Source of the DNA: Alicyclobacillus sp. SP_1
GTDB lineage: Bacteria > Bacillota > Bacilli > Alicyclobacillales > Alicyclobacillaceae
Reading direction: 5' to 3'
Length of the DNA: 64,000 nt
Assembly (NCBI RefSeq): GCF_024706985.1
Contig: NZ_JAMCCX010000028.1
Coordinates: 124,001 to 188,000, forward strand
Shown here: piece by piece, positions 40,853-64,000 of the stretch
Position numbering within the stretch: position 1 is the first letter of the stretch
How the letters are laid out: each line of letters opens with the position of its first letter
Program-made: the position numbers and the translations under genes
The notes under the pieces: model-generated
Told to the model about the DNA's origin: nothing
The model's input: the letters and a program-made list of their open reading frames with translations, nothing else
The model's database searches: none

Positions 40853-41345
40853 CCCCCTTTGTTCTCTGAATAGAGTAAGTTGCTGTCCGGCAACTTCCGG
40901 TCTTCGGGACGATGGAATACGTTCTCGACGAAGGCGAACTAAAAAAGCTTGCAAGCTAAAAAAGTGAACTGTCTCGCAGGGATGCATCACCACTTCTCTG
41001 TGTTTTTTGTTCAGTTAAAATATTTAGTTATTTCGATGGATTGTGTCTGACTTGGTGATTGTGTCTGACTATGGTCGTAGGTGGATACTGATGTGATGAA
41101 CTTAAACTGCGCTTTAAAAATCGTGATTTCTCAGTGAGTATGTTCGTAATCATGATTGAATAACGCAAGTATAGCGATGCTTGTCGTTTCGGTCAATCAT
41201 ATTTTTTTCTATGTCCCTATTTACAATCTTGATTAGACATCGTAATATTCAAAATATAATCATGATTACAGAAACCGCAAAGAGGTCCGATACACGCGGT
41301 GGATGGATGGTCAAGACATTTTGTAACGTTTGAGGAGAGATGAGA
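40853..41345. promoter_or_regulatory. shared control region of the betaine regulon (493 bp, no gene)
   Basis: Divergent regulatory region. AATCnTGATT occurs four times: 41119-41128, 41148-41157, 41225-41234 and 41258-41267. The last overlaps a perfect TATAAT (41255-41260) likely serving the rightward genes. GATTGTGTCTGACT is repeated at 41039-41052 and 41057-41070, upstream of the leftward unit. The leftward leader has a perfect AAGTTGC/GCAACTT hairpin (40877-40896). On the minus strand it has AGCTTGCAAGCT followed by six T residues (40957-40941), which resembles a weak terminator. The regulator is unknown. Confidence 0.6.
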
Positions 41346-43322
41346 ATGGGACAATTCGACATGTTGCTGTCCCCGGCCAAAATCCGTCATGTGGAGGTGA
41401 AAAACCGCATTGCGGTCACAGCCCATGCTACAGGGCTGAATCCCAATAGTTACCCATCCGATAAGTTCATTGCTTACAATGCCGAGAAAGCCCGGAATGG
41501 TGTGGGCTTGTTGATGACCATGGGTTCCGGTTCTGTCCACCCGACTTCTCCTAATTCAGACTGGGGGGGCATTCACAACTGGGACGAATCCATTCTTCCT
41601 TATCTCCGAAAAATGTCCGAAGCCATCAAGCCGCATGGCGCGATTTTAATGGCGCAAATTTCGCATCGGGGCCGGCGCGCCAATCGGGATGTGACGTGGT
41701 TGCCAATTTATGCTCCGTCGGACGACCCGGAGCCGCTGCACCGAGACATGCCTCACGAAATTCAATCCGAGGATGTTGATTGGCTCGTTGATGCTTATGT
41801 TCAAGCCGCATTGCGGCTGAAACGTGGTGGATTTGACGGCGCGGAAATTTCGGCTGCGCATGGACACCTCATTGACCAATTTTGGTCTCCCATCTCCAAC
41901 CACCGTTCGGATGCCTATGGAGGGTCTCTTGAGAATCGCATGCGCTTTGGAATGCAAGTGATTGACGCTGTGCGCGATGCAGTTGGGGACGACTTTTTAG
42001 TCGGCTTGCGCATGACTGGAGACGAATTGATTGAAAACGGATTGACGGTCGAAGATATGCAACAGATTGCACTCAAGATAGCGGAGACCGGGAAAATAGA
42101 CATTTTGAATGTGATTGGCTCCATTGGCACGACTGAGTACCATCAAGCACTCACTGTACCTTCCATGAATTATCCGGCGGGTATTTTTACCGGCTTTGCC
42201 GCTTCAATTCGAGCGACTTTGCAAGAGAATGGATTCGATATTCCGGTTTTGGCATGTGGGAAAATTGTCCACCCGCTTCAAGCGGAGACCATTTTAGCAG
42301 AAGGTCAGGCTGATTTTGTGGGCATGAACCGTGCCATCATTGCCGACCCGGAGATGCCGCAAAAGACCATGGATGGCAGAATTGACGACATTCGCTTATG
42401 TATGGGTGCGAACGAGGGCTGCATTGGCCGAATTTATGTCGGCAAGCCGATGATTTGTGTACAAAACCCTGTCATCAGCCGCGAGAGTGAACTCATTCCC
42501 TGGCGTCCCGCGACTGCACAAAAACGCGTTGTTGTGGTTGGTGGTGGGCCCGGTGGACTGGAGGCTGCAAGAATGGCGGCCGAACGCGGACATCAGGTCA
42601 CGCTCTTGGAAAAATCGAGCCAACTTGGAGGGCAAATTCGCCTGGCCGGGAAAGCTCCCAACCGCGATGCTTATACGCAATCCGTTGATTGGCTAGAGGG
42701 TCAGATTCGCAAACTCGGTATCGACGTAAGGCTCGGTGTCAACGCTGATGAGGAGGACATCTTGGCCTTGCAGCCAGAGGCGGTCATTATTGCAACGGGA
42801 TCGACCGCAAGAAGACTTCATCTGCCCGGTGCGGATGCTCCTTTTGTGTTTACGGCGAGAGATGTGCTGGAGGGAGGGGAGGACATTGGGCACAAGGTTC
42901 TCTTCATCGACGAGCACCATCATCAAGAGGGGCTCTCCACAGCGGAATATTTGGCGCAGCGTGAACATGAGGTGACCGTCATTTCACGCCTGTGGATTGT
43001 CGGCGAGGAAATTGATGGAACGCTTCGACCAGATTTGTACGCACGGCTGGACAATTTAGGGGTGGTGATTCACCCTAACGTGTTGGCGAAACAAGTGGAA
43101 GCAGACGGCAGTGTGCTGGTGGAAAACTATCATTCCCATCGAGAGTGGACGATGGGTCCGTATGATGCCATCGTGGTCGCTGCGAAAGGCGTAGCGAATG
43201 ACGGACTGTGGAAAAAACTGAAAGGCAAAGTTCCCGAGTTGCATCTTATTGGCGATGCGGTTGCTCCACGGGGGCTGCATGACGCGCTTCTTGAAGGAAC
43301 TCGCGTGGCGCGTGTGGTCTGA
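41346..43322 (+). CDS. dgcA: dimethylglycine dehydrogenase-like flavoprotein (DgcA / OYE-TMADH family)
   Basis: Probable oxidative demethylation of dimethylglycine to sarcosine and formaldehyde. The 658 residues combine an N-terminal FMN barrel (LMAQISHRGRR, GAEISAAHGHLIDQFWSP near residue 163), a cysteine cluster (CMGANEGCIGR and a later VQNP segment preceded by Cys), and a C-terminal FAD/NAD-type domain (VVVVGGGPGGLEAARMAAERG near 393). This is the trimethylamine dehydrogenase/dienoyl-CoA reductase plan. ATG 41346 is eight bases from GAGGAG; ATG 41340 is too close. Downstream EtfAB, a DgcB-like protein and a GbcA-like oxygenase argue for DgcA over a dienoyl-CoA reductase. Confidence 0.8.
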   Translation: MGQFDMLLSPAKIRHVEVKNRIAVTAHATGLNPNSYPSDKFIAYNAEKARNGVGLLMTMGSGSVHPTSPNSDWGGIHNWDESILPYLRKMSEAIKPHGAILMAQISHRGRRANRDVTWLPIYAPSDDPEPLHRDMPHEIQSEDVDWLVDAYVQAALRLKRGGFDGAEISAAHGHLIDQFWSPISNHRSDAYGGSLENRMRFGMQVIDAVRDAVGDDFLVGLRMTGDELIENGLTVEDMQQIALKIAETGKIDILNVIGSIGTTEYHQALTVPSMNYPAGIFTGFAASIRATLQENGFDIPVLACGKIVHPLQAETILAEGQADFVGMNRAIIADPEMPQKTMDGRIDDIRLCMGANEGCIGRIYVGKPMICVQNPVISRESELIPWRPATAQKRVVVVGGGPGGLEAARMAAERGHQVTLLEKSSQLGGQIRLAGKAPNRDAYTQSVDWLEGQIRKLGIDVRLGVNADEEDILALQPEAVIIATGSTARRLHLPGADAPFVFTARDVLEGGEDIGHKVLFIDEHHHQEGLSTAEYLAQREHEVTVISRLWIVGEEIDGTLRPDLYARLDNLGVVIHPNVLAKQVEADGSVLVENYHSHREWTMGPYDAIVVAAKGVANDGLWKKLKGKVPELHLIGDAVAPRGLHDALLEGTRVARVV

Positions 43323-47907: not shown

Positions 47908-49114
47908 TCCGACGTCCATTGTCATCGTAGGCGCAGGAGTTGCTGGTGTGCAAGCGGTCGAGACACTGCGCAGAGAAGGGTATGAAGGTGCACTGACGGT
48001 GGTCGACAAAGCGGCCGAGATTCCTTACGACAGGCCGCCACTGTCAAAAGAATTTCTTGCCGGTACGGTTACTGCAGAAGACATCGCATTGCGCTCGCCG
48101 GGCCATTGGAATCAGTGGGATGTCGATTTGCGACTGACGGTCGAGGCGACCCAGATCGATCCACGTGAGCACACCCTCACCACTGCGAGTGGCGACGTCA
48201 TTGCGTGGGATAAGGTGTTGTTGGCGACGGGATCGACCCTTCGAGAATTGAAGGTACCAGGAATAACGCTCGACGGGGTCTTTTATCTCAAGACGCTGGA
48301 AGACGCCGCTCGCCTGCGTGCCGCCTTGTCGGAGGTTCAAGAATTGGTGGTCGTTGGAGCTGGGTTTATTGGTGCAGAGGTAGCCTCTACGTGTCGAAAA
48401 CGTGGCCTTCACGTCACGGTTCTCGAGATGATGAAGTATCCGCTGGCGCACATTCTAGGTGAAGATTTAGGACACTACTTCGCTCGTCTCCACGAAGCGC
48501 ACGATGTCGACCTGCGCACGGAAGAGTCGATTGTTGCCGTTCATGGTAAGACGCGAGTTGAGTCAGTTGAGACTTCTAAAGGGCAGACGATCTCTTGCCA
48601 AGCGGTCGTGGTGGGAGTTGGCGTGATGGCCAACACGCCTATTTTGCACGAGCAGTTGGAGGTGAGTCGAGGATATGTCGTGGACGCTTTTGGAAGGACG
48701 TCCCTGCCCGGCGTGTTTGCGGCTGGCGACTGCACTGTTTGGCCGTATCGCGGCCACATGATTCATGTTGAACATTGGGATCACGCCGTTCAACACGCGA
48801 AAACGATTGCAAGAAACATGTTGGCCGAAGAGATGGTTCCATATGACACGGTTCCGTATTTTTGGTCAGACCAATATGGTAACCGTTATCAGTACGTAGG
48901 TCATGCTGCGAAGTGGTCACAAACCGTGACGCGGGGTTCGCAGGCGGAGCATCGGTTCACACAGATGTATCTCGATGAAGAAAACAGGCTCTTGGCAGCA
49001 CTGGTCGCGAATCGGCCCAAAGATGTGATGAGCCTCCGTCGATTGATTGATGCAAGGCGACCGGTCGACCGCATGCAACTGGAAAACGAAGCACTGTCTT
49101 TTACCCAATTGTGA
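47900..49114 (+). CDS. FAD-dependent ferredoxin reductase
   Basis: NAD(P)H to Rieske ferredoxin electron transfer. The 404 residues have the FAD motif IVIVGAGVAGVQAVETLRRE at the N-terminus, YDRPPLSKEFL typical of BphA4/putidaredoxin reductases, an NADH motif LVVVGAGFIGAEVAS near residue 153 and VFAAGDCTVWPY near 271. GTG 47900 follows GGAGGG. With the ferredoxin it replaces the single fused reductase (GbcB) known from Pseudomonas. Confidence 0.9.
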   Translation: MHSPTSIVIVGAGVAGVQAVETLRREGYEGALTVVDKAAEIPYDRPPLSKEFLAGTVTAEDIALRSPGHWNQWDVDLRLTVEATQIDPREHTLTTASGDVIAWDKVLLATGSTLRELKVPGITLDGVFYLKTLEDAARLRAALSEVQELVVVGAGFIGAEVASTCRKRGLHVTVLEMMKYPLAHILGEDLGHYFARLHEAHDVDLRTEESIVAVHGKTRVESVETSKGQTISCQAVVVGVGVMANTPILHEQLEVSRGYVVDAFGRTSLPGVFAAGDCTVWPYRGHMIHVEHWDHAVQHAKTIARNMLAEEMVPYDTVPYFWSDQYGNRYQYVGHAAKWSQTVTRGSQAEHRFTQMYLDEENRLLAALVANRPKDVMSLRRLIDARRPVDRMQLENEALSFTQL

Positions 49115-49127
49115 GGAGGAATTTTAT

Positions 49128-50288
49128 ATGGCAACTAAGCTTGTGGAAGGCGGATGGCCTGAAGGGACGATTGTCCGTCCCACTTTGCCGGGAAAAGACT
49201 ATTACGACGTTCAAAACTATCAAAGAGAGTTGGAGAAAATCTGGTTTCGGACATGGCTCTGTATAGGCCGGGTTGAAGAGTGGAAGAACGCTGGTGACTT
49301 TATAACGACTCAAGTGGCCCACGAGAACGTCATGAGTGTGTTGACCAGCGATGGCCAGATAAAGTCTTACTACAATGTCTGTAGGCACAAGGGCTCTCGC
49401 CTGTGCGAGGGGTCTTCAGGACATTTCCATCAGGGGCGCATCTTCTGCCCTTATCACAGTTGGGGATACAACGCTGACTCTGGTGCCTTAATTCGCACAC
49501 CCAATCTACCAGACGACTTAGAAGGCTTTTGTCGTGATGATTTTAGTCTCTTTCAGGTGCGGACCGAGACGGCTCACGGTTTTGTTTTCATTAACTTTGA
49601 CAAGGATACGGAATCTCTGGAACAAGCGCTGGGACTGCCCGAATCGTTTGACATCTATGAGCGATATCATTTTCAGAGATTGCGGTTAGGGCATAAAAAA
49701 TCGTATGTGGTCGAAGCAAACTGGAAATTAATCATGGAAAATGCTTTGGAGTGTTACCACTGTTCTACGATTCATCCAGAGTTGAGTCGTTGCACACCGC
49801 CAACCATCGCTCGTCACTGGGTTCACGATGAAGTTCCCGGTACGAAAATTTTGATGCATGCAGGAGCCATGCAGTTGGCGCCAGGATTTGAGCGTATGAC
49901 GATGGACGGGGTGGGGCGACGCCCGTTCTTTCCTGATATTACGGAGCAGGACCGCAAAGGAATTTATTATTTCTTTATTTTCCCTCATCTTTTCTTCGCC
50001 GTGGCATCGGACTACGTATTCTATTTCTCTGCTTGGCCTATGGCTGGAGATAAGACACTGGTCGTAGGACATTGGTTGTTTGAACCAGAAGTTCTGGAAA
50101 ATCCCGAATATGATATTTCGGATGCCGTCGACTTTTGGGATATTACGAGTGTCGAAGATTGGAAAGCAAGTGAACTGGTTCAACAAGGAAATCAATCCAA
50201 GGCTTACGAGCACGGTGGCGTGTTGATTCCAAACGACTGGCGTGTAGGTAAGTTTAGTGACTATGTTCGCAATGAGTTAGCCGACTAG
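49128..50288 (+). CDS. gbcA: Rieske oxygenase alpha subunit, probable glycine betaine monooxygenase
   Basis: Predicted to demethylate glycine betaine to dimethylglycine and formaldehyde using O2. The 386 residues have the Rieske cluster CRHKGSRLC (near residue 84) and CPYHSWGYN (near 107). Mononuclear iron histidines are in NALECYHCSTIHPEL near 210 and an aspartate in the DAVDFWDITSVEDW end region. Gly-betaine, choline, carnitine and proline-betaine oxygenases share this group, but the betaine transporter and DgcAB-like genes favour betaine. AGGAGGA lies upstream of ATG 49128. Confidence 0.82.
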   Translation: MATKLVEGGWPEGTIVRPTLPGKDYYDVQNYQRELEKIWFRTWLCIGRVEEWKNAGDFITTQVAHENVMSVLTSDGQIKSYYNVCRHKGSRLCEGSSGHFHQGRIFCPYHSWGYNADSGALIRTPNLPDDLEGFCRDDFSLFQVRTETAHGFVFINFDKDTESLEQALGLPESFDIYERYHFQRLRLGHKKSYVVEANWKLIMENALECYHCSTIHPELSRCTPPTIARHWVHDEVPGTKILMHAGAMQLAPGFERMTMDGVGRRPFFPDITEQDRKGIYYFFIFPHLFFAVASDYVFYFSAWPMAGDKTLVVGHWLFEPEVLENPEYDISDAVDFWDITSVEDWKASELVQQGNQSKAYEHGGVLIPNDWRVGKFSDYVRNELAD

Positions 50289-55905: not shown

Positions 55906-55999
55906 CAAGAATGCTTTTTCTCGCTTCTGTCGGATGGCGAGAAACATGGTAGACTGGGTGCGTGTCGTTCGCACTTGGTCTATTTTTTTGTGGGAGTTG

Positions 56000-56470
56000 A
56001 TGAGAACGTTGGACGGATATCATTTTGCACATCCCTTGCGCGTGCGGTTTGCAGAGGTGGATGCGCAACAGGTCGTCTTCAATGCGCACTATCTTACATA
56101 CTTGGATATCGCCTTTGCCGCCTATTTGAAACGAGGCGTACAAGTTTGGCAGGAGGGGCTGCCGCGGACCGTGATCGCCCGGACGACGTTGGAGTTTAAA
56201 AACTCGGCTCGATACGACGACGACTTGTTGGTGTCTGTGCGAACGGCTCACATTGGCCGCACCAGCTTGCGAGTCGAATTTGCGGTACTGCGAGTGGTTG
56301 GCGAGTCCGAAGAGTTGTTGGCGACGGCGGAGACGACCTATGTTTACATCCATCAAGATTCCAAGCGGCCAGCTCCTGTTCCGGACGACTGGCGCGAAAC
56401 CATTCTGCGCTATGAGGGTCGAACAAGCCTCGACCCATCGGCTGCCGAGAAGAGGGAGGGAGACCGATGA
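56000..56470 (+). CDS. 4-hydroxybenzoyl-CoA thioesterase family (YbgC-like) hotdog protein
   Basis: Acyl-CoA (or acyl-ACP) thioesterase of 156 residues. The hotdog active-site motif is RFAEVDAQQVVFNAHYLTYLD near residue 15 (quoted in part), with Asp before the conserved N-x-HY; then TTLEFKNSARYDDDLLV. ATG 56000 gives the family length, with TGGGAG just upstream. It overlaps the SDR gene by four bases (ATGA), so the two are coupled. Substrate unknown; it may hydrolyse cyclic or aromatic acyl-CoA given the neighbours. Confidence 0.85.
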   Translation: MRTLDGYHFAHPLRVRFAEVDAQQVVFNAHYLTYLDIAFAAYLKRGVQVWQEGLPRTVIARTTLEFKNSARYDDDLLVSVRTAHIGRTSLRVEFAVLRVVGESEELLATAETTYVYIHQDSKRPAPVPDDWRETILRYEGRTSLDPSAAEKREGDR

Positions 56471-57255
56471 ATTCTCAGGAAGCGTCGCAAAGAGACGGTC
56501 GGCTCTATCAGAAAGTCGCGCTCATCACGGGAGCTGCAGGAGGGATTGGGGCAGCGACCGCTCGCCAGTTTGCCCGAGAAGGAGCACAGGTGGTGCTCGC
56601 CGACCTGCGCCTTGAGGCAGCAACGGAACTCGCTGAGGAGATTGTCAGCCTCGGTGGCGCGGCGACCGCTGTCCGAGTTGACGTGAGTGACTACGACAGC
56701 GTCCAAGCGGCAGTTCAATTTGCAGAGCAGACCTACGGGCACCTCGACATTCTTTTCAACAATGCGGGCATCTTTGGCGACGGTCAACGCGATGTCACAG
56801 ACCTCTCACTGGACGAGTACCATCGCACCGTTCGCATCAATCAAGACGGTGTCTTTTATGGCATCAAGGCTGCCGGCGCGGCCATGAAAGAGCAGGGCGG
56901 CGTGATTATCAACACCGCGTCGATATACGCGTTTATCGCGGACCGTCGCCAATTCTCCTATCATGCGACGAAAGCCGCCGTCGTCGGAATGACGAGAGCC
57001 GCGGCTCTGGATTTGGCGAAATACAACATTCGCGTGGTTGCGATCGCACCGAGTATGATTGACACTCCACTGATTGACCCGTGGCGATCCGATGAGAGAG
57101 TCTGGAACACGGTTCGCAAAGCGCAGATGCGCCAACAGTTTGGCCGGCCAGAACAGGTTGCCGCCGTAGTGACTTTCTTGGCCAGCGACGAAGCGTCCTT
57201 TGTGAATGGGCATGAGTTTTTTGTGGATGATGGCGCCGCATCGTTCAAGCGGTGA
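56467..57255 (+). CDS. short-chain dehydrogenase/reductase
   Basis: NAD(P)-dependent SDR of 262 residues. The cofactor motif is ALITGAAGGIGAATARQF near residue 18, then ILFNNAGIFG, a catalytic Ser in NTASIYAF, YHATK (Y-x3-K) near 162, and a C-terminal FLASDEASFVNGHEFFVDDG. Aspartate in VVLADLR after beta-2 suggests NAD(H). Classical SDR; within this cluster it may oxidise a ring hydroxyl. A GCGCTG/CAGCGC hairpin (57259-57281) follows, without a T tract. Confidence 0.9.
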   Translation: MNSQEASQRDGRLYQKVALITGAAGGIGAATARQFAREGAQVVLADLRLEAATELAEEIVSLGGAATAVRVDVSDYDSVQAAVQFAEQTYGHLDILFNNAGIFGDGQRDVTDLSLDEYHRTVRINQDGVFYGIKAAGAAMKEQGGVIINTASIYAFIADRRQFSYHATKAAVVGMTRAAALDLAKYNIRVVAIAPSMIDTPLIDPWRSDERVWNTVRKAQMRQQFGRPEQVAAVVTFLASDEASFVNGHEFFVDDGAASFKR

Positions 57256-57305
57256 CGGGCGCTGCCGAGGGCGGCCAGCGCTTGACGTTTCGCCGCCCCA
57301 AAAGC

Positions 57306-58439
57306 TCACGCGTCTGTGAGCAGTCGCCGAGCAATGACCATCTTCTGCGTCTCTGCGGTGCCTTCCTCAAACCGCTGCATCCTCGCATCCCGGTAAATTC
57401 GCTCCATTTCGGACGATTTGAAGTAGCCAATGCCGCCGTGAATCTGCAGCGCTTTGTCCGTGACACGCTGAAGCATGTCGGCGGCAAAGTATTTTGCCAT
57501 GGCCGCCATATCTGGAGGCAGATGGCCGTCATCGAAGGATTTAGCTGCCGCTCGTGTCAAGTGACGGGCCGCTTCAATATCGGTCGCCATTTCCGCGAGC
57601 CAAAATTGAATCGTGGGTCGGTCTGCCAAGGATTTTCCGAATGTGACGCGTTCTTTGGCATGTGCCACGGCTATTTGAAGTGCCCGGTTTGCGAGTCCCA
57701 CACAAGTCATCGCAATCGCGGTCCGACTTGGATGGAGAAAGCCGTCGAAGGCCACGCGCAGTCCATCGCCTTCGCTCCCAATGCGATACTGCTCCGGCAC
57801 AAAACAGTCATCAAAGCGGAGATGTCCATGTACGGTGCCGGTAATGCCCATCGCGCCTGCCATCGGTTCGACGGTCAGTCCGGGCGTATCGCGGGGGACG
57901 AGTAGGGCCATCGTCCCTTCCTTGCCACGCGTCCCTTCGAGGCGGCAAAAGGTCAGAAAGTAGTCGGTGAAGTCGGAGAAAATAATCATCCACTTTTCGC
58001 CTCGAAGGGTGTAACCGTTGGTCTGTCGCCGTGCGGTCGTCCGGATGTCGGTGCCTGACCCTGAATTGGGTTCCGAGAGCGTGAACGTCATCCACCGTTC
58101 GCCAGAAAGCAGGGACTGCCCAAAACTTCGCATCTGGGCCTCAGTCAAATGGCCGTCCAAGGTTCTCCATATACTGTTTGCTACATGCACGAGAACGCGC
58201 AAAGACCCATGCATTTCGGACAAGGTACCGAGGAGTTCTAGATAGTCGGCGAAAGGCAGACCAAGGCCGCCGTAAGTGGTCGGCCGGGCGAGGCGGAACA
58301 AGTCATGCCGTTCCAGTTCCCGGCGCATGTTGGGCGTAACCACGCCGTCCGCTTCAATCGAATCGGACATCGCGCGAGCTGGGCCGTTTACAAATTGTTC
58401 AATCCGCTCTTGCAATTGAAGGAAATTTTCGTGCTCCAT
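57306..58439 (-). CDS. acyl-CoA dehydrogenase family flavoprotein
   Basis: FAD enzyme of 377 residues. Features are FTLSEPNSGSGTDIRTTA near residue 125, GEKWMI, RVTFGKSLADRP near 260, and the C-terminal QIHGGIGYFKSSEMERIYRDAR. The usual base glutamate region reads FEEGTAETQ, so Glu-Gly-Thr is kept. ATG 58439 shares one base with the upstream ligase stop (TGATG). AnsL/PlmL of cyclohexanecarboxyl pathways and CHC-CoA dehydrogenases belong to this family; exact substrate is inferred only. Confidence 0.88.
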   Translation of the reverse strand: MEHENFLQLQERIEQFVNGPARAMSDSIEADGVVTPNMRRELERHDLFRLARPTTYGGLGLPFADYLELLGTLSEMHGSLRVLVHVANSIWRTLDGHLTEAQMRSFGQSLLSGERWMTFTLSEPNSGSGTDIRTTARRQTNGYTLRGEKWMIIFSDFTDYFLTFCRLEGTRGKEGTMALLVPRDTPGLTVEPMAGAMGITGTVHGHLRFDDCFVPEQYRIGSEGDGLRVAFDGFLHPSRTAIAMTCVGLANRALQIAVAHAKERVTFGKSLADRPTIQFWLAEMATDIEAARHLTRAAAKSFDDGHLPPDMAAMAKYFAADMLQRVTDKALQIHGGIGYFKSSEMERIYRDARMQRFEEGTAETQKMVIARRLLTDA

Positions 58440-60100
58440 CAGTGCTGCACCTCGCTTGTTGGTCCGACTGTCTGCTCCTCTTGGAGTTTGCCTGCAATGT
58501 CTTGGCGCAGAATGTATTTCTGCACCTTTCCACTCGCCGTTCGCGGCAATTCTGAGACGCATTCGACGCGTTCTGGCCAATAGATCTTGGCCACGCCACG
58601 CGATTCGAGAAAATCCGTCAGGTCTTGCAACGACAAAGACTGTCCTGCTTGGACGACGACGTACGCACAGGCACGTTCGCCGAGCCGCTCATCGGGCATA
58701 GCCACGAGGGCCATATCCACCACAGCAGGATGTTGATACAGAATATCTTCCAGTTCGGCGACGGGGATTTTCTCGCCACCGCGGTTGATCACGTCCTTTT
58801 TTCGGCCGGTCAGGTGCAAAAATCCTGCGCTGTCGATGGTGGCTAAGTCGCCGGTGTCAAAGAAACCGTCCTCCGTAAATCCAGCAGCGTACAGGTCGTG
58901 CCGGTGCAGATAGTCCACGAACATGGCCGGTGTTTTGACTTGGAAGTTGCCTTCGACGCCAGCAGGTACTTCGCGTCCCGCATCGTCTACAACGCGCATC
59001 TGCATGCCGTCCATGACGCGACCGTCCGTTCCCCACAGAGACTGTGGTGGGTCGCTCGGACGACCGACGGCAACGAGACACGCTTCGGTCGATCCCCAAC
59101 CGCCTACCACTTGACAGGCGAGGAGGCTGGACGCGCGCTCGGCGAGAGCGCGCGGAATGGCGGCACCCGTCGCAACAAAAGTCCGCAATCCCTGGGGAGG
59201 GGTATTTTGACGAACGAGATCCGCCAAAAAAGGCATGGCCGCCTGCACGAATCGTGCCCCATGCTGCTCGATGGCTCTGCGGGCTGTCTCGGTGTCCCAA
59301 ATGGCTTGATAAATTCCGGTGCTGCCGAGATACAGCGAAACCATCATGCCGTAAAGAAATCCAGTCTGGTGGGCCAGCGGAGAGGGGACGTAGACCGAAT
59401 CAGCATCGGTCAAGGCCAGGGTTTGCGTATGGTGCATAAGCGCAGCCAACAAGGTCCCGTGGGTGTGCAGGGCTCCTTTCGGTGCACCCGTGGTGCCGGA
59501 TGTGAAGAGGAGCTCCGCGAGAGCATCTCTGTCCGGGGACCTAGCGTCAATGGCGGATTTGTTATAACTATCTGCCATGAGTGTGCCGAGGTTGCTCTTC
59601 TCTGGATGGCGGTTGTCCATCGGCAAAATACAGATTTCCAGTGTCTGTGGAACGGTAGCTGCTATGTTCTCGGCGAGCGGTCGATAATCGAAATTCCGGA
59701 ATGAGTCGGGGACGGCCAGCAGGCGGCTGCCGGACTGTTCGACAATATAGCTCACTTCGCGTTCGCGCAAACTGGGCAGAATTGGGCAAGGCAGGGCGCC
59801 AATCCTCCAGATGCCGAGCGTGAGGGCGATAAACTCCCAACCCGTTGGCCACTGATAGCAGACAGCTTCTCCGGGTTGAATGTCACGCGCCAAAAGCTGC
59901 TCTGCAACTCGATAGGACTTATCGACCAGTGAGGCGTAAGACAGTTGCCAGGCCTCTCCTTTGGGGAGCAGGTCAACGATGGCGGTGCGCTCTGGCGTCG
60001 CCGCCGCGACGGTATCGATACGGGACAGGATGGTTTCTCGGGAATGGCACGTTTCGTTGTTCCAATGCTGGATGCTTTCAGAAGCATGAATGGATGACAT
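58439..60100 (-). CDS. AMP-dependent acyl-CoA synthetase/ligase
   Basis: Activates a carboxylic acid as acyl-AMP then CoA thioester. The 553 residues contain the P-loop ELLFTSGTTGAPKGALHTHG near residue 180, a VVGGWGSTEA motif, YAAGFTEDGFFDTGDLATID near 405, and the C-terminal RTASGKVQKYILR with the catalytic lysine. It most resembles cyclohexanecarboxylate/medium-chain or aryl-acid ligases in motif pattern. ATG 60100 follows AAGGAG; the open frame continues upstream to 60466 across the divergent promoter region, which is not coding. Confidence 0.88.
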   Translation of the reverse strand: MSSIHASESIQHWNNETCHSRETILSRIDTVAAATPERTAIVDLLPKGEAWQLSYASLVDKSYRVAEQLLARDIQPGEAVCYQWPTGWEFIALTLGIWRIGALPCPILPSLREREVSYIVEQSGSRLLAVPDSFRNFDYRPLAENIAATVPQTLEICILPMDNRHPEKSNLGTLMADSYNKSAIDARSPDRDALAELLFTSGTTGAPKGALHTHGTLLAALMHHTQTLALTDADSVYVPSPLAHQTGFLYGMMVSLYLGSTGIYQAIWDTETARRAIEQHGARFVQAAMPFLADLVRQNTPPQGLRTFVATGAAIPRALAERASSLLACQVVGGWGSTEACLVAVGRPSDPPQSLWGTDGRVMDGMQMRVVDDAGREVPAGVEGNFQVKTPAMFVDYLHRHDLYAAGFTEDGFFDTGDLATIDSAGFLHLTGRKKDVINRGGEKIPVAELEDILYQHPAVVDMALVAMPDERLGERACAYVVVQAGQSLSLQDLTDFLESRGVAKIYWPERVECVSELPRTASGKVQKYILRQDIAGKLQEEQTVGPTSEVQH

Positions 60101-60184
60101 GAAGCAACACTCCTTGGGTGCACGTTGTCGCGTGAACGCGCGCTTTCGGCCGTGCAAAGCGCGATGCTTTGATTCGTTTTTCAG

Positions 60185-60223
60185 TCTAGTGATAGTATAA
60201 TACAGCAAGAATTCTAGTAATAA
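60185..60223 (+). promoter_or_regulatory. divergent promoter region of the acyl-metabolism cluster
   Basis: In the 177-base gap, a perfect TATAAT lies at 60196-60201 for the rightward genes. TCTAGT-G-ATA and TCTAGT-A-ATA are repeated about 28 bases apart around it (near 60185 and 60213), a possible operator pair. Confidence 0.4.
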
Positions 60224-60277
60224 TTGAACGGTTGCCAGCAGTGAGTCCCTAGTGCGCCTCTTTGGGAAAAAGGAACG

Positions 60278-62335
60278 GTGATAGAGTTGTTTGAAGATAA
60301 ATGGTATACGGCTTCCGGGAGTGAGCGATGGCGCCAACCGGGGAAAATCGGGACTCTGGAGTTGCCCCACCGCTTGTTGATGGGCTCGATGCATCTCGGA
60401 TTGGAGGCGAGCAGCGAACATCTGCCGCGGCTTATCGCTTTTTATGTCGAGCGCGTTCGAGGGCAAGCGGCACTCATCATCACGGGAGGCGTCGCGGTTT
60501 CTCGAGAAGGTTCATCGCATCGCATGTTCTGTCTACTCGAAGAAGAGCACGCTGCTATGCTTCAGAAACTGGCTGGGGCAGTGCATGAAGCTGGCGGCCG
60601 TATCGCTATGCAACTCTTTCACTCGGGTCGCTACGCCCATTCAGCGGAGACTGGGGAAGCGGCGGTTGCTCCCAGTCCGGTCGCCTCGCGATTGACCGGA
60701 GAAATGCCGCGAGAACTGAGCGTCGAGGACATCCTGCACCTTGTCGGGCGTTATGCGGCGGCGGCCGTCAAGGCTCGTCAGCTGGGCTACGATGCGATTG
60801 AAATCATGGGTTCTGAAGGATATCTGCTCAATCAGTTTCTCTCGCCGCTGACGAATCATCGGGAGGATGACTATGGCGGCTCTGCAGAGAAGCGGCGCAA
60901 ATTCCCTCTCGATGTGGTCAAAGGGATACGAGCGGCGGTCGGTTCCGACTTTCCAATCATTTTTCGGATGTCTGGTGTGGACTTGATGGCGGGAAGCACT
61001 ACTCTCGAAGAAACCTATGATTTGGCTGTCGCGCTCGAGGAGGCGGGGGTGGATGCGCTCAACATCGGCGTTGGCTGGCATGAGTCGACCGTGCCGACGG
61101 TCGCTGCAGTCGTTCCCCGCGCCGCCTTTTCCCCTATTGTTGCGGCCATTCGTCAGCACGTGCAAGTTCCAGTCATCGCGGCCAATCGGATGAATGTACC
61201 GGAGGCATTTCAGCCGCTGTTTGAATCGGGTCAGGTGGACTTTGTGGCAGCAGCTCGACCATGGCTGGCAGATGCGGAGTTTGGCCGAAAAGTGTTGGAG
61301 GGTCGGCGCAGTCAAATGAATGTGTGCATTGCCTGCAACCAATCGTGTCTCGACCACACGCTGGTGAGACCGCTCATTCCGGCCAGTTGTCTGGTCAATC
61401 CTCGCGCCGGGTTTGAGGCGGAGCGCCCGCTTTCAAAAGCAGACGTTGCACTTCGGGTTGCCGTCCTTGGCGGTGGTCCGGCAGGCTTGGAAGCGGCGAG
61501 AGTGGCGGCGCTGCGCGGCCACGCCGTCACGCTGTTTGAAGCGGCTGCGGAACTCGGAGGGCAGTTTCGGTATGCAGCGCGTATTCCTGACAAGGAAGAA
61601 TTTTACGAGACCTTGCGCTATTATCGCGTGATGTTGGCAGAGTTGGGAGTGGACGTCCGCCTTGAGACCGAGCCAACGGCCGCCGACTTGCAGGGATTTC
61701 AGTCGATTCTGGTGGCGACGGGTGTGCGTCCTCACATCCCAGACTTGCCTGGCACGGAGCTTCCGCACGTGCGCACCTACGTCGACATCTTGACGCAAGG
61801 CTTTGCTGATGCACAAGAGATTGTCTTGGTCGGCGCAGGAGGAATTGCCTGTGATGTGGCCAAATATATAACAGAGCGGGTTCGGCCGAATGCGGCGGTG
61901 AATCAGTTTTTGACGGAGATTGGCGCTCCGTTGACGTCGGTTCACAGGCCCAACGTCACGATGGTCGCTCGGTCGAAGCGCGTTGCGTCCGGCGTTGGCA
62001 GGACGACAAGATGGATTGTCCGCAGCGAGTTGACGGCGAGTGGGGTCCGCATATTGACGGAGTGTAGGCCAGTGGAAATTGTTCCAGGAGGCCTTCGCGT
62101 TCAAGGTCAAGGCGTGACAGAAGCGACTCTGATTGGCGCGGATTTAGTCGTGCTCTGCACCGGACAGCGACCACAACAGGCGGTGCTTCAGGAACTCGGA
62201 GACGACCCACGCGTTCTTTGCATCGGCGGCGCGCGGGACAGCGCAGGGCTGACTGCGGCAAGGGCGATACGCGAGGGTTTTGATGCGGCTTACCGACTGG
62301 GGCAGGAGACTGCTGAAGACGGACAGGCCGTTTGA
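60278..62335 (+). CDS. 2,4-dienoyl-CoA reductase-like FMN/FAD/Fe-S flavoprotein
   Basis: The 685 residues follow the FadH plan: FMN barrel with MQLFHSGRYAHS near residue 111 and EIMGSEGYLLNQFLSPLTNHR near 172 (quoted in part), Fe-S ligands CIACNQSCLDHTL and a later Cys in PASCLVNPRAG near 350, FAD domain VAVLGGGPAGLEAARVAALRG near 388, and a NAD-binding segment VLVGAGGIACDVAKY near 517. Unlike the DgcA-like relative at 41 kb, the canonical four-cysteine cluster of dienoyl-CoA reductases is kept. GTG 60278 follows AAAAGGAAC. AnsM-type enzymes of cyclohexanecarboxyl synthesis belong here. Confidence 0.88.
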   Translation: MIELFEDKWYTASGSERWRQPGKIGTLELPHRLLMGSMHLGLEASSEHLPRLIAFYVERVRGQAALIITGGVAVSREGSSHRMFCLLEEEHAAMLQKLAGAVHEAGGRIAMQLFHSGRYAHSAETGEAAVAPSPVASRLTGEMPRELSVEDILHLVGRYAAAAVKARQLGYDAIEIMGSEGYLLNQFLSPLTNHREDDYGGSAEKRRKFPLDVVKGIRAAVGSDFPIIFRMSGVDLMAGSTTLEETYDLAVALEEAGVDALNIGVGWHESTVPTVAAVVPRAAFSPIVAAIRQHVQVPVIAANRMNVPEAFQPLFESGQVDFVAAARPWLADAEFGRKVLEGRRSQMNVCIACNQSCLDHTLVRPLIPASCLVNPRAGFEAERPLSKADVALRVAVLGGGPAGLEAARVAALRGHAVTLFEAAAELGGQFRYAARIPDKEEFYETLRYYRVMLAELGVDVRLETEPTAADLQGFQSILVATGVRPHIPDLPGTELPHVRTYVDILTQGFADAQEIVLVGAGGIACDVAKYITERVRPNAAVNQFLTEIGAPLTSVHRPNVTMVARSKRVASGVGRTTRWIVRSELTASGVRILTECRPVEIVPGGLRVQGQGVTEATLIGADLVVLCTGQRPQQAVLQELGDDPRVLCIGGARDSAGLTAARAIREGFDAAYRLGQETAEDGQAV

Positions 62336-62432
62336 CACAGTAAAAAATCAGATGTTGGGGGGGAGGTAGAAACGTGCATCGAGGTAGGCCCCGCGCACGT
62401 GCCTGGTCCTCGTTTGCCTGGTTCTACCGAGG

Positions 62433-63218
62433 TTGATGACGGGTGTACTCGAAGGGAAAAATGTTCTGGTGACGGGCAGCAGTCGTGGCATTGGCCGGGC
62501 GTCAGCCCTTGCGATGGCGCGGGCTGGAGCAAACGTCGTCGTCCATTATCGACGAGACGGCAACGCAGCTGAAGAGACAGCGAATGAAATCCGCGGCTTG
62601 GGTAAACAAGCACTGGTGTTGAAAGCGGAAATCGAGTCAGAGGACGAACTTCGTGCGATGTTTGACCGCATCAAGGACGAATTTGGGCACCTCGATGTGC
62701 TCATGGCCAATGCTGCGGCCAGCGCCTTTAAGCCGATTGCCGACCTTAAGGGTTATCATTTAGACCGTACATATCGCGTCGTGTTACACAGCCTGGTGCA
62801 GTGTGTGCAGTTGGCGGTACCACTGATGGCTGGCCGCCAAGGCAGGATTATCACCATGTCAAGCATGGGCAGTCGCTTCACGTTGCCGCGCTATGCTGCG
62901 CTTGGCACGGCGAAAGCCGCACTGGAGTCTCTGACCCGTTACATCGCGGCAGAGTATGGTCCAGAGGGAATCACCTGCAACGCCTTGAATCCTGGCGTGG
63001 TCGCGACCGAATCCGCGAAGTTTTACGGAGCGGACCACTACGACGCTTACGAGCGAGATGTACTCGCTCACACGCCGCTAGGACGGCTTGCAGAACCGGA
63101 AGATATCGCGGATGTAGCGGTGTTTTTAGCGAGTGATGCGGCGCGTTTCATCACCGGTCAGACGATTCGCGTTGATGGCGGTTTGACGCTTACGACCGGA
63201 GGATTCGAGAGTTTCTAA
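62433..63218 (+). CDS. FabL/ChcA-like enoyl reductase of the SDR family
   Basis: SDR of about 260 residues: LVTGSSRGIGRASALAMARAG near residue 11 (in part), VHYRRDG (basic residues suggest NADPH), VLMANAAASAFKPIADL. The active-site tyrosine and lysine are spaced Y-x6-K (RYAALGTAKAALE). Y-x6-K rather than Y-x3-K is the mark of enoyl-ACP reductase III (FabL) and related enoyl reductases, so an enoyl rather than ketone substrate is expected. Adjacent TTG 62433 and ATG 62436 starts have only CGAGG nearby. An ACP gene follows 33 bases after the stop. Confidence 0.87.
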   Translation: MMTGVLEGKNVLVTGSSRGIGRASALAMARAGANVVVHYRRDGNAAEETANEIRGLGKQALVLKAEIESEDELRAMFDRIKDEFGHLDVLMANAAASAFKPIADLKGYHLDRTYRVVLHSLVQCVQLAVPLMAGRQGRIITMSSMGSRFTLPRYAALGTAKAALESLTRYIAAEYGPEGITCNALNPGVVATESAKFYGADHYDAYERDVLAHTPLGRLAEPEDIADVAVFLASDAARFITGQTIRVDGGLTLTTGGFESF

Positions 63219-63251
63219 GACGACAGACACACAGCGAGGGGTGCTTTCACC

Positions 63252-63500
63252 ATGACGAGAGAAGAAATTCAGAACCGGATTGCCAAGGTCATCACCGCAC
63301 AACTTCAAATGTCCGAGGATTCCATTCAGCCGGACAGTCACTTTGTGGACGATCTCGGTGCAGACTCCCTAGACTTGACAGAGCTTGTGGTTGCGTTTGA
63401 AGATGAGTTCAATTTGGAGATTCCAGACTCGGATTTCAATCATGTGACGACCGTTCGTGGGGTTGTCGATTACCTTGAAAAGCGCATTCAGCAGTCCTGA
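63252..63500 (+). CDS. acyl carrier protein
   Basis: 82-residue ACP with the phosphopantetheine serine in DDLGADSLDLTELVVAFED near residue 39; acidic helix II follows. The sequence is close to fatty-acid ACPs. Its place among ligases and reductases, without fabD/F/G-type neighbours, suggests a dedicated carrier for pathway intermediates. The start ATG has only a moderate ribosome site (GAGGGG at 63237-63242). Confidence 0.93.
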   Translation: MTREEIQNRIAKVITAQLQMSEDSIQPDSHFVDDLGADSLDLTELVVAFEDEFNLEIPDSDFNHVTTVRGVVDYLEKRIQQS

Positions 63501-63559
63501 CGTGCTCGCATTTGGGTACATTCTGTCGAGCGGAGGATGAAGTAAAGGAGACGACTGCC

Positions 63560-64000
63560 ATGCATCACTTTCCCGGAATGGTGTTGACGGAGGCGCGCGC
63601 CAAGGCATATCTGGAGCAGGGGATATGGGCGAACGAGTCGTACGTGGACGTTCTCATGAAACAAGTCGCTGCCCATCCGAACGTCGAGCACCGCGATGAA
63701 AACCGCACCCTCACTTACCATGCATTGTGGCAAGAGGTGGAGAGCTTTGCCGCTTCGCTTTATCAACTCGGCGTGCGAAAGGGAGACCGTGTTGCGCTAC
63801 AACTGCCCAATTGCCTGGATTATGTTGTGGCGCTCTTTGCGACGGCGCGTCTCGGTGCTGTGTCCGTTCTGCTGCAAACCGACTTAGGGCGTGACCAACT
63901 TTTGTACAGCCTGAAAGCCTCTGGAGCGAAGGTTTGGGTGGTGACGGACAGTTTTCGCGGGGAGTCGCTTCTTGACACCGCGATGTCGGTACGCCAATCC
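63560..64000 (+). CDS. AMP-dependent ligase, EntE-like (5' part, runs off the window)
   Basis: An open frame of 147 codons continues to the window edge without a stop. ATG 63560 is nine bases after AAAGGAG (63544-63550). The product begins MHHFPGMVLTEARAKAYLEQ and has the N-terminal adenylate-forming fold: YVDVLMKQVAAHP, RTLTYHALWQEVESFAASL, LGVRKGDRVALQLPN, ALFATARLGAVSVL. The RVALQLPN segment resembles aryl-acid-AMP ligases that load a carrier protein. Adjacent to the ACP gene, it may charge that ACP. Catalytic motifs lie beyond the window. Confidence 0.85.
   Translation, partial: MHHFPGMVLTEARAKAYLEQGIWANESYVDVLMKQVAAHPNVEHRDENRTLTYHALWQEVESFAASLYQLGVRKGDRVALQLPNCLDYVVALFATARLGAVSVLLQTDLGRDQLLYSLKASGAKVWVVTDSFRGESLLDTAMSVRQS

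What the first reader, a model, noticed from the sequence alone, without database searches (positions are those of the whole stretch)
55934..64000. Candidate shikimate-to-cyclohexanecarboxyl (omega-alicyclic starter) biosynthesis cluster
Seen: AMP ligase, acyl-CoA dehydrogenase, four-Cys dienoyl-CoA reductase-like flavoprotein, Y-x6-K enoyl reductase, ACP, second EntE-like ligase, SDR and thioesterase in 8 kb. There is no enoyl hydratase, thiolase or ring hydrolase, as expected for degradation. Established: cyclohexanecarboxyl-CoA synthesis in ansatrienin-type clusters uses an acyl-CoA dehydrogenase (AnsL type), a dienoyl-CoA reductase-like flavoprotein (AnsM type) and the SDR enoyl reductase ChcA. 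Alicyclobacillus lipids carry omega-cyclohexyl chains from such a starter. Inference: this cluster makes that starter, possibly on the dedicated ACP.
Basis: partly seen in the sequence, partly recalled or inferred. Interest (0 to 1): 0.8.

Follow-up and report, generated by a model that had tools for sequence, protein, structure and literature searches.

The report
Cyclohexyl-lipid starter biosynthesis gene cluster
This Alicyclobacillus-family genome carries the genes that very probably turn shikimate into the cyclohexane-carboxyl starter of its ring-tipped membrane lipids, in a version that lacks the extra EPSP-synthase-like enzyme found in most relatives of the cluster.

Summary
In detail: TE, SDR, acyl-CoA dehydrogenase, AMP ligase, FadH-like flavoprotein, Y-x6-K reductase, ACP and a second ligase lie at the stated positions. 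Past 64000 the run continues with a second acyl-CoA dehydrogenase, a zinc alcohol dehydrogenase and FabL. The core ligase/ACAD/OYE/SDR set equals the published phoslactomycin CHC-CoA gene set (plmJK, plmL, plmM, chcA). It recurs in 11 of 25 same-family genomes and, with similar neighbours, in Paenibacillaceae, Sporolactobacillaceae, Eremiobacterota and Conexibacter. In most relatives the cluster also holds a DAHP synthase and/or a dedicated EPSP-synthase-like paralogue, which argues for synthesis from shikimate and against degradation. All six named carriers with a published lipid type contain omega-cyclohexane fatty acids. The unexpected part: the EPSP-synthase-like gene is absent from the whole window genome and from nine Alicyclobacillus species tested. 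In 11 of 12 clusters lacking it, an ACP-ligase-ACAD-alcohol dehydrogenase module sits beside the core. How these species replace that step is open. No functional test was possible, the strain's lipids are unknown to me, and a 2025 taxonomic paper I could not read may already describe the cluster.

The parts
56000..56470 (+). TE: 4HBT/YbgC-FadM-type acyl thioesterase (likely start 56000, not 55934; overlaps SDR1 by ATGA)
   Evidence: Pfam/NCBIfam; orthologues 42-59% identical next to SDR1 in Alicyclobacillus clusters
56467..57255 (+). SDR1: classical SDR with YxxxK (YHATK)
   Evidence: orthologues 64-73%. A DAHP synthase gene sits between SDR1 and ACAD1 in most relatives and is missing here (51-bp gap)
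57306..58439 (-). ACAD1 (PlmL/AnsL-type acyl-CoA dehydrogenase); catalytic Glu at residue 359 in EEGT motif
   Evidence: orthologues 51-64% in Bacillota, 47-49% in Eremiobacterota/Conexibacter
58439..60100 (-). LIG1: AMP-forming acyl ligase (PlmJK/AnsK-type), stop overlaps the ACAD1 start (TGATG)
   Evidence: best NCBIfam model is cyclohexanecarboxylate-CoA ligase TIGR03208, 437.6 bits against a cut-off of 792
60101..60277 (.). 177-bp divergent intergenic region; in many relatives an EPSP-synthase-like gene (AROL) lies here
   Evidence: one weak sigma-70-like match only, hardly above shuffles
60278..62335 (+). OYE: FadH-like FMN/FAD/4Fe-4S dienoyl-CoA reductase family protein (PlmM/AnsM-type)
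   Evidence: (best solved relative 1ps9, 2,4-dienoyl-CoA reductase)
62436..63218 (+). SDR2: FabL-like Y-x6-K reductase, proposed ChcA counterpart (1-cyclohexenylcarbonyl thioester reductase)
   Evidence: (248.6 bits against FabL cut-off 328); orthologues 57-74% in most Bacillota clusters
63252..63500 (+). ACP with GADSLD phosphopantetheine site
   Evidence: orthologues 53-65% next to LIG2
63560..64000 (+). LIG2: second AMP-forming acyl ligase, continues to 65206 outside the window; followed by ACAD2 (65234-66385), zinc alcohol dehydrogenase MDR (66382-67443) and FabL/SDR3 (67465-68238)
   Evidence: L002 read from the same contig

Best explanation
The cluster makes a cyclohexanecarboxyl thioester from shikimate as the starter of omega-cyclohexyl fatty acids. 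Shikimate (C7H10O5) must lose three waters and gain eight hydrogens to become cyclohexanecarboxylate (C7H12O2). Proposed steps, all inferred: LIG1 (and/or LIG2, onto the ACP) activates shikimate or an early product as a thioester. Ring hydroxyls are removed by eliminations that need the thioester and, in most relatives, an EPSP-synthase-like enzyme. The flavoprotein (OYE) reduces ring dienoyl thioesters to the 1-enoyl form. ACAD1 moves or introduces ring double bonds. SDR2 reduces cyclohex-1-enecarbonyl thioester to the saturated ring. The product enters fatty acid synthesis, perhaps from the ACP. TE could free stalled or excess thioesters, as AsuC15 is reported to do for CHC. Shown here: gene content, conserved neighbourhood, conserved catalytic residues, clade membership, and co-occurrence with shikimate-pathway enzymes.
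For: Core LIG1/ACAD1/OYE/SDR2 matches the published phoslactomycin CHC-CoA genes plmJK (ligase), plmL (CoA dehydrogenase), plmM (FMN oxidoreductase), chcA. The core is conserved in neighbourhood at 34 of the 80 best OYE loci, across Bacillota, Eremiobacterota and Conexibacter (link defined). In relatives the cluster contains a DAHP synthase (NCBIfam 450 bits, cut-off 335) and an AroA-family paralogue (307.5 bits, cut-off 287) beside the housekeeping AroA. In Eremiobacterota the AroA-like and ligase parts lie in a single open frame of about 1000 aa, recalling the double name plmJK. OYE tree: operon-linked genes need 3 label changes, shuffles average 26.9, none of 500 as low. Presence is bimodal in the family: 11 of 25 genomes at 53-62% identity, the rest at about 35% or less. 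Six named carriers with published lipids (sendaiensis, acidiphilus, fastidiosus, sacchari, hesperidum, and montanus as a synonym of tolerans) are all omega-cyclohexane species. [quoted passage not shown]
Against: No enzyme or mutant was tested and the window strain's lipids are unknown. No gene in the cluster is an obvious dehydratase. The AroA-like gene typical of the operon is absent from this genome, as is a cluster-linked DAHP synthase. Core carriers such as Cohnella and Scopulibacillus are not known to me as omega-cyclohexyl producers, so the core alone need not mean cyclohexyl lipids. Module 2 also occurs in family members that lack the core. I could not compare directly with ansatrienin or phoslactomycin protein sequences. 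Species with omega-cycloheptane or no alicyclic acids could not be tested by name.
Confidence: 0.86

Rival explanations
1. A shikimate-derived cyclic acid other than fully reduced cyclohexanecarboxylate (for example a cyclohexenyl or hydroxylated ring acid) is made, for lipids or a secondary metabolite.
For: Enzyme families fit any partial reduction; the core occurs in Cohnella, Paenibacillus and Eremiobacterota, where cyclohexyl lipids are not known to me.
Against: Carriers in this family with published lipids have omega-cyclohexane as their alicyclic type; the gene set matches the published CHC-CoA set.
Confidence: 0.08
2. A catabolic cluster for cyclohexanecarboxylate or a related acid (bad-ali type: ligase AliA, dehydrogenase AliB, hydratase BadK, dehydrogenase BadH, ring hydrolase BadI).
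For: LIG1's best NCBIfam model is cyclohexanecarboxylate-CoA ligase and both ACADs match cyclohexanecarboxyl-CoA dehydrogenase models, all below cut-off.
Against: No hydratase, ring hydrolase or thiolase; two shikimate-pathway enzymes (DAHP synthase, AroA-like) are embedded in orthologous clusters; ACP and FabL genes. Bad-ali genes are described in PMC9795900.
Confidence: 0.03
3. Ordinary fatty acid or beta-oxidation genes lying together, with the core reading over-interpreted.
For: All families are large and promiscuous; FabL is a housekeeping enzyme.
Against: Conserved arrangement across phyla and a tree that separates operon-linked OYEs from stand-alone ones.
Confidence: 0.02

Closest known systems
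CHC-CoA biosynthesis genes of phoslactomycin/lactomycin and ansatrienin (plmJK, plmL, plmM, chcA; ansJ-M)
   Same: AMP ligase, acyl-CoA dehydrogenase, FMN oxidoreductase and a cyclohexenylcarbonyl-CoA reductase in one cluster (PMC5852498 Table 2)
   Different: No polyketide synthase here; carries its own ACP, second ligase, second ACAD, zinc alcohol dehydrogenase, FabL and TE; reductase is FabL-like with Y-x6-K; no EPSP-synthase-like gene in this genome. Direct sequence comparison was not possible
AROL-LIG1-ACAD1-OYE-SDR2 operons in Cohnella, Paenibacillus, Scopulibacillus, Eremiobacterota, Conexibacter (among loci L087-L154)
   Same: Core genes 44-63% identical, same neighbourhood
   Different: They include the EPSP-synthase-like paralogue; most lack the ACP-LIG2-ACAD2-MDR module (Scopulibacillus has most or all of it)
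bad-ali cyclohexanecarboxylate degradation
   Same: Ligase plus acyl-CoA dehydrogenase acting on a cyclohexane ring
   Different: Lacks BadI/BadK equivalents; orthologous clusters hold anabolic shikimate enzymes

Membership tests
CHC-CoA biosynthesis cluster (plm/ans type) | AMP ligase + ACAD + FadH-like flavoprotein + enoyl reductase together | tested here: met
CHC-CoA biosynthesis cluster (plm/ans type) | Sequence orthology to PlmJK, PlmL, PlmM, ChcA | not tested
   no such sequences reachable; the plasmid collection gave only ordinary AroA hits
CHC-CoA biosynthesis cluster (plm/ans type) | Link to shikimate supply or a shikimate-converting enzyme | tested here: inconclusive
   met in orthologous clusters (DAHP synthase, AroA-like), not in the window's own cluster
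CHC-CoA biosynthesis cluster (plm/ans type) | Makes cyclohexanecarboxyl-CoA | not testable with these tools
   needs enzyme assay or gene deletion
omega-cyclohexyl fatty acid producer | Carriers have omega-cyclohexane lipids | tested here: inconclusive
   6 of 6 named carriers with a published type agree, but non-producers could not be tested by name and the window strain is unnamed
bad-ali CHC degradation | AliA and AliB equivalog cut-offs; hydratase and ring hydrolase | tested here: not met
   TIGR03208 437.6 of 792; TIGR03207 132.6 of 575; no hydratase or hydrolase gene
FabL enoyl-ACP reductase | NF005975 cut-off 328 bits | tested here: not met
   SDR2 scores 248.6; SDR3 scores 340.5 and meets it

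The most novel reading that the evidence does not exclude
Two chemically different routes from shikimate to the cyclohexane starter exist: an ancestral one using the EPSP-synthase-like paralogue, and a second one in the window strain and the well-known omega-cyclohexyl Alicyclobacillus species, which lost that enzyme more than once and use the ACP, LIG2, ACAD2 and alcohol dehydrogenase instead, perhaps on ACP-bound intermediates.
Probability: 0.3. Interest if true: 0.75.

Novelty: new variant of a known kind. Interest (0 to 1): 0.6.

Why it matters
The ring-tipped lipids gave Alicyclobacillus its name, and their origin from shikimate was reported in 1972, yet I found no open paper naming the genes. 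The cluster gives a concrete gene set to delete or express, a genetic marker to predict which species carry these lipids, and a thermophilic source of CHC-CoA enzymes of the kind used for doramectin production. The repeated absence of the EPSP-synthase-like enzyme makes the unresolved deoxygenation steps testable by comparison.

Tried and rejected
Looked for an EPSP-synthase-like or dehydratase gene beyond 64000: none in the downstream run, and the genome holds only a housekeeping AroA and two further EPSP-family genes that do not rank as this paralogue. Looked for Streptomyces CHC clusters in plasmids: only ordinary AroA hits. A draw of 396 Actinomycetota gave five carriers of the paralogue, with no polyketide synthase recognised in the stretches read. 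Considered that module 2 simply replaces the AroA-like enzyme; not accepted as proven because carriers of that enzyme often hold module 2 elsewhere in the genome. The key 2025 paper on Alicyclobacillus chemotaxonomy and the A. curvatus/mengziensis description were not held.
Full report
What is there. The window is bases 124001-188000 of contig C28 of a 3.4-Mb, 105-contig genome. It shares a genus-level group with a genome (G001) whose contig matches A. montanus by length (158,980 bases), which a 2026 list treats as a synonym of A. tolerans (PMC13426508). Likely starts are TE 56000, SDR2 62436, ligase 2 63560. Tight overlaps (TE/SDR1 ATGA, LIG1/ACAD1 TGATG, ACAD2/MDR) suggest co-transcribed groups: LIG1-ACAD1 and OYE-SDR2-ACP-LIG2-ACAD2-MDR-FabL read away from the 177-bp gap at 60101-60277, and TE-SDR1. 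The run continues past the window with ligase 2, ACAD2, a zinc alcohol dehydrogenase (MDR) and FabL, then unrelated genes.

Enzyme readings. The flavoprotein is FadH-like: best solved relative 1ps9, 2,4-dienoyl-CoA reductase, with four Fe-S cysteines and the Glu/Tyr/His positions invariant in nine orthologues; the assignment of those residues to catalysis rests on my knowledge of FadH. ACAD1 keeps the catalytic Glu. SDR2 aligns with FabL through a Y-x6-K site but scores 248.6 against the FabL cut-off of 328, whereas SDR3 scores 340.5. So SDR2 is a FabL-like paralogue and SDR3 is ordinary FabL.

Conserved neighbourhood. The flavoprotein has orthologues of 53-62% identity in 11 of 25 same-family genomes (the window's own included); the rest have only generic homologues of about 35% or less. 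Around these orthologues the same genes recur. Two further genes appear in the gaps: a DAHP synthase between SDR1 and ACAD1, and an EPSP-synthase-like gene (here called AROL) between LIG1 and OYE. In a named scan, the 80 best loci were read: AROL-LIG1-ACAD1-OYE-SDR2 occurs in Cohnella, Paenibacillus, Scopulibacillus, Pullulanibacillus and Sporolactobacillus, and similar sets in Eremiobacterota (most with DAHP synthase) and Conexibacter, while Brevibacillus and many Bacillaceae have the flavoprotein alone. A tree of 82 flavoproteins groups the operon-linked ones: 3 label changes against a shuffled mean of 26.9, none of 500 as low. In Actinomycetota four more genomes have AROL-LIG1-ACAD1-SDR sets.

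AROL. Thirty AROL proteins against 28 AroA-type proteins show fixed differences: Tyr for Ser23, His for Asn26, Gln/Tyr for Arg100, Leu for Ser169 and Ile for Lys411, while K22, R27, R124, D313, E341, R344 and R386 are kept (E. coli numbering assigned by motif from memory, not by a direct alignment to the E. coli protein). From known EPSP synthase structures this suggests an active enzyme with an altered substrate, possibly without the 3-phosphate; that is inference. One idea is that it turns a ring hydroxyl into a pyruvate-type leaving group.

What it makes. Published phoslactomycin CHC-CoA genes include plmJK (AMP ligase), plmL (CoA dehydrogenase), chcA (cyclohexenylcarbonyl-CoA reductase) and plmM (FMN oxidoreductase) (PMC5852498). 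The core set here is the same by function. With DAHP synthase and AROL in orthologous clusters, synthesis from shikimate is the economical reading; shikimate to cyclohexanecarboxylate needs three dehydrations and four two-electron reductions by composition. Named carriers with a published lipid type, from PMC5023266 Table 1, are A. sendaiensis, acidiphilus, fastidiosus, sacchari and hesperidum, all omega-cyclohexane; montanus joins through tolerans, with the caution that tengchongensis, also merged there, was reported as omega-cycloheptane. None of the omega-cycloheptane or alicyclic-free species appeared among the hits, but known omega-cyclohexane species such as acidocaldarius and acidoterrestris did not appear either, so absence from the list proves nothing. 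Thioesterase control of omega-cyclohexyl lipids has a precedent in AsuC15 (PMC4147253).

The twist. AROL is absent from the entire window genome and from A. sendaiensis, fructus, mali, acidiphilus, fastidiosus, suci, sacchari, hesperidum and montanus, each with a single AroA-type gene. Eleven of twelve family clusters without AROL have ACP-LIG2-ACAD2-MDR directly after SDR2; five of five with AROL do not have it in that place (Fisher p 0.001, not corrected for relatedness). G012, a draft genome, is the exception. A four-protein tree needs three changes for either label and starred branches force at least two, so the exchange probably happened more than once. But carriers of AROL also hold LIG2-ACAD2-MDR elsewhere, Scopulibacillus darangshiensis has everything together, and some family members have module 2 without the core. 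So module 2 is not simply a substitute; its role (starter transfer to fatty acid synthase, or an ACP-bound deoxygenation route) is open.

Novelty. [quoted passage not shown] I therefore rate it a new variant of a known kind.

Noticed in passing
L164:9539-14323 (G000 contig C83, about 78.5-83.3 kb): A second set of a LIG2-like ligase (51%), a LIG1-like ligase (37%; TIGR03208 509 bits, below cut-off) and a divergent FabF-like ketosynthase; similar ketosynthase sets near ligase, FabL or ACP genes occur in G009, G011 and G016. May feed another acyl starter into fatty acid synthesis.
   Followed up: partly
L157 (G009), L158 (G011), L159 (G014): Parts of the ACP-LIG2-ACAD2-MDR module occur in family members that lack the core cluster; possibly a general or cycloheptyl starter-loading module.
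   Followed up: partly
L103, L119, L126, L133, L138, L144: In Eremiobacterota the EPSP-synthase-like and ligase parts lie in one open frame of about 1000 aa, beside a DAHP synthase; cyclohexyl or related ring acids are not known to me in this phylum.
   Followed up: no
L154: Cohnella zeiphila has LIG1-ACAD1-OYE-SDR2 without the EPSP-synthase-like gene anywhere in its genome, an independent case of its absence.
   Followed up: no
window 41340-43322: A second FadH/OYE-type flavoprotein about 32% identical to the cluster's one; its role was not examined.
   Followed up: no
window 49047-50288: Rieske-type ring-hydroxylating oxygenase alpha subunit resembling glycine betaine monooxygenase, below its cut-off.
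   Followed up: no
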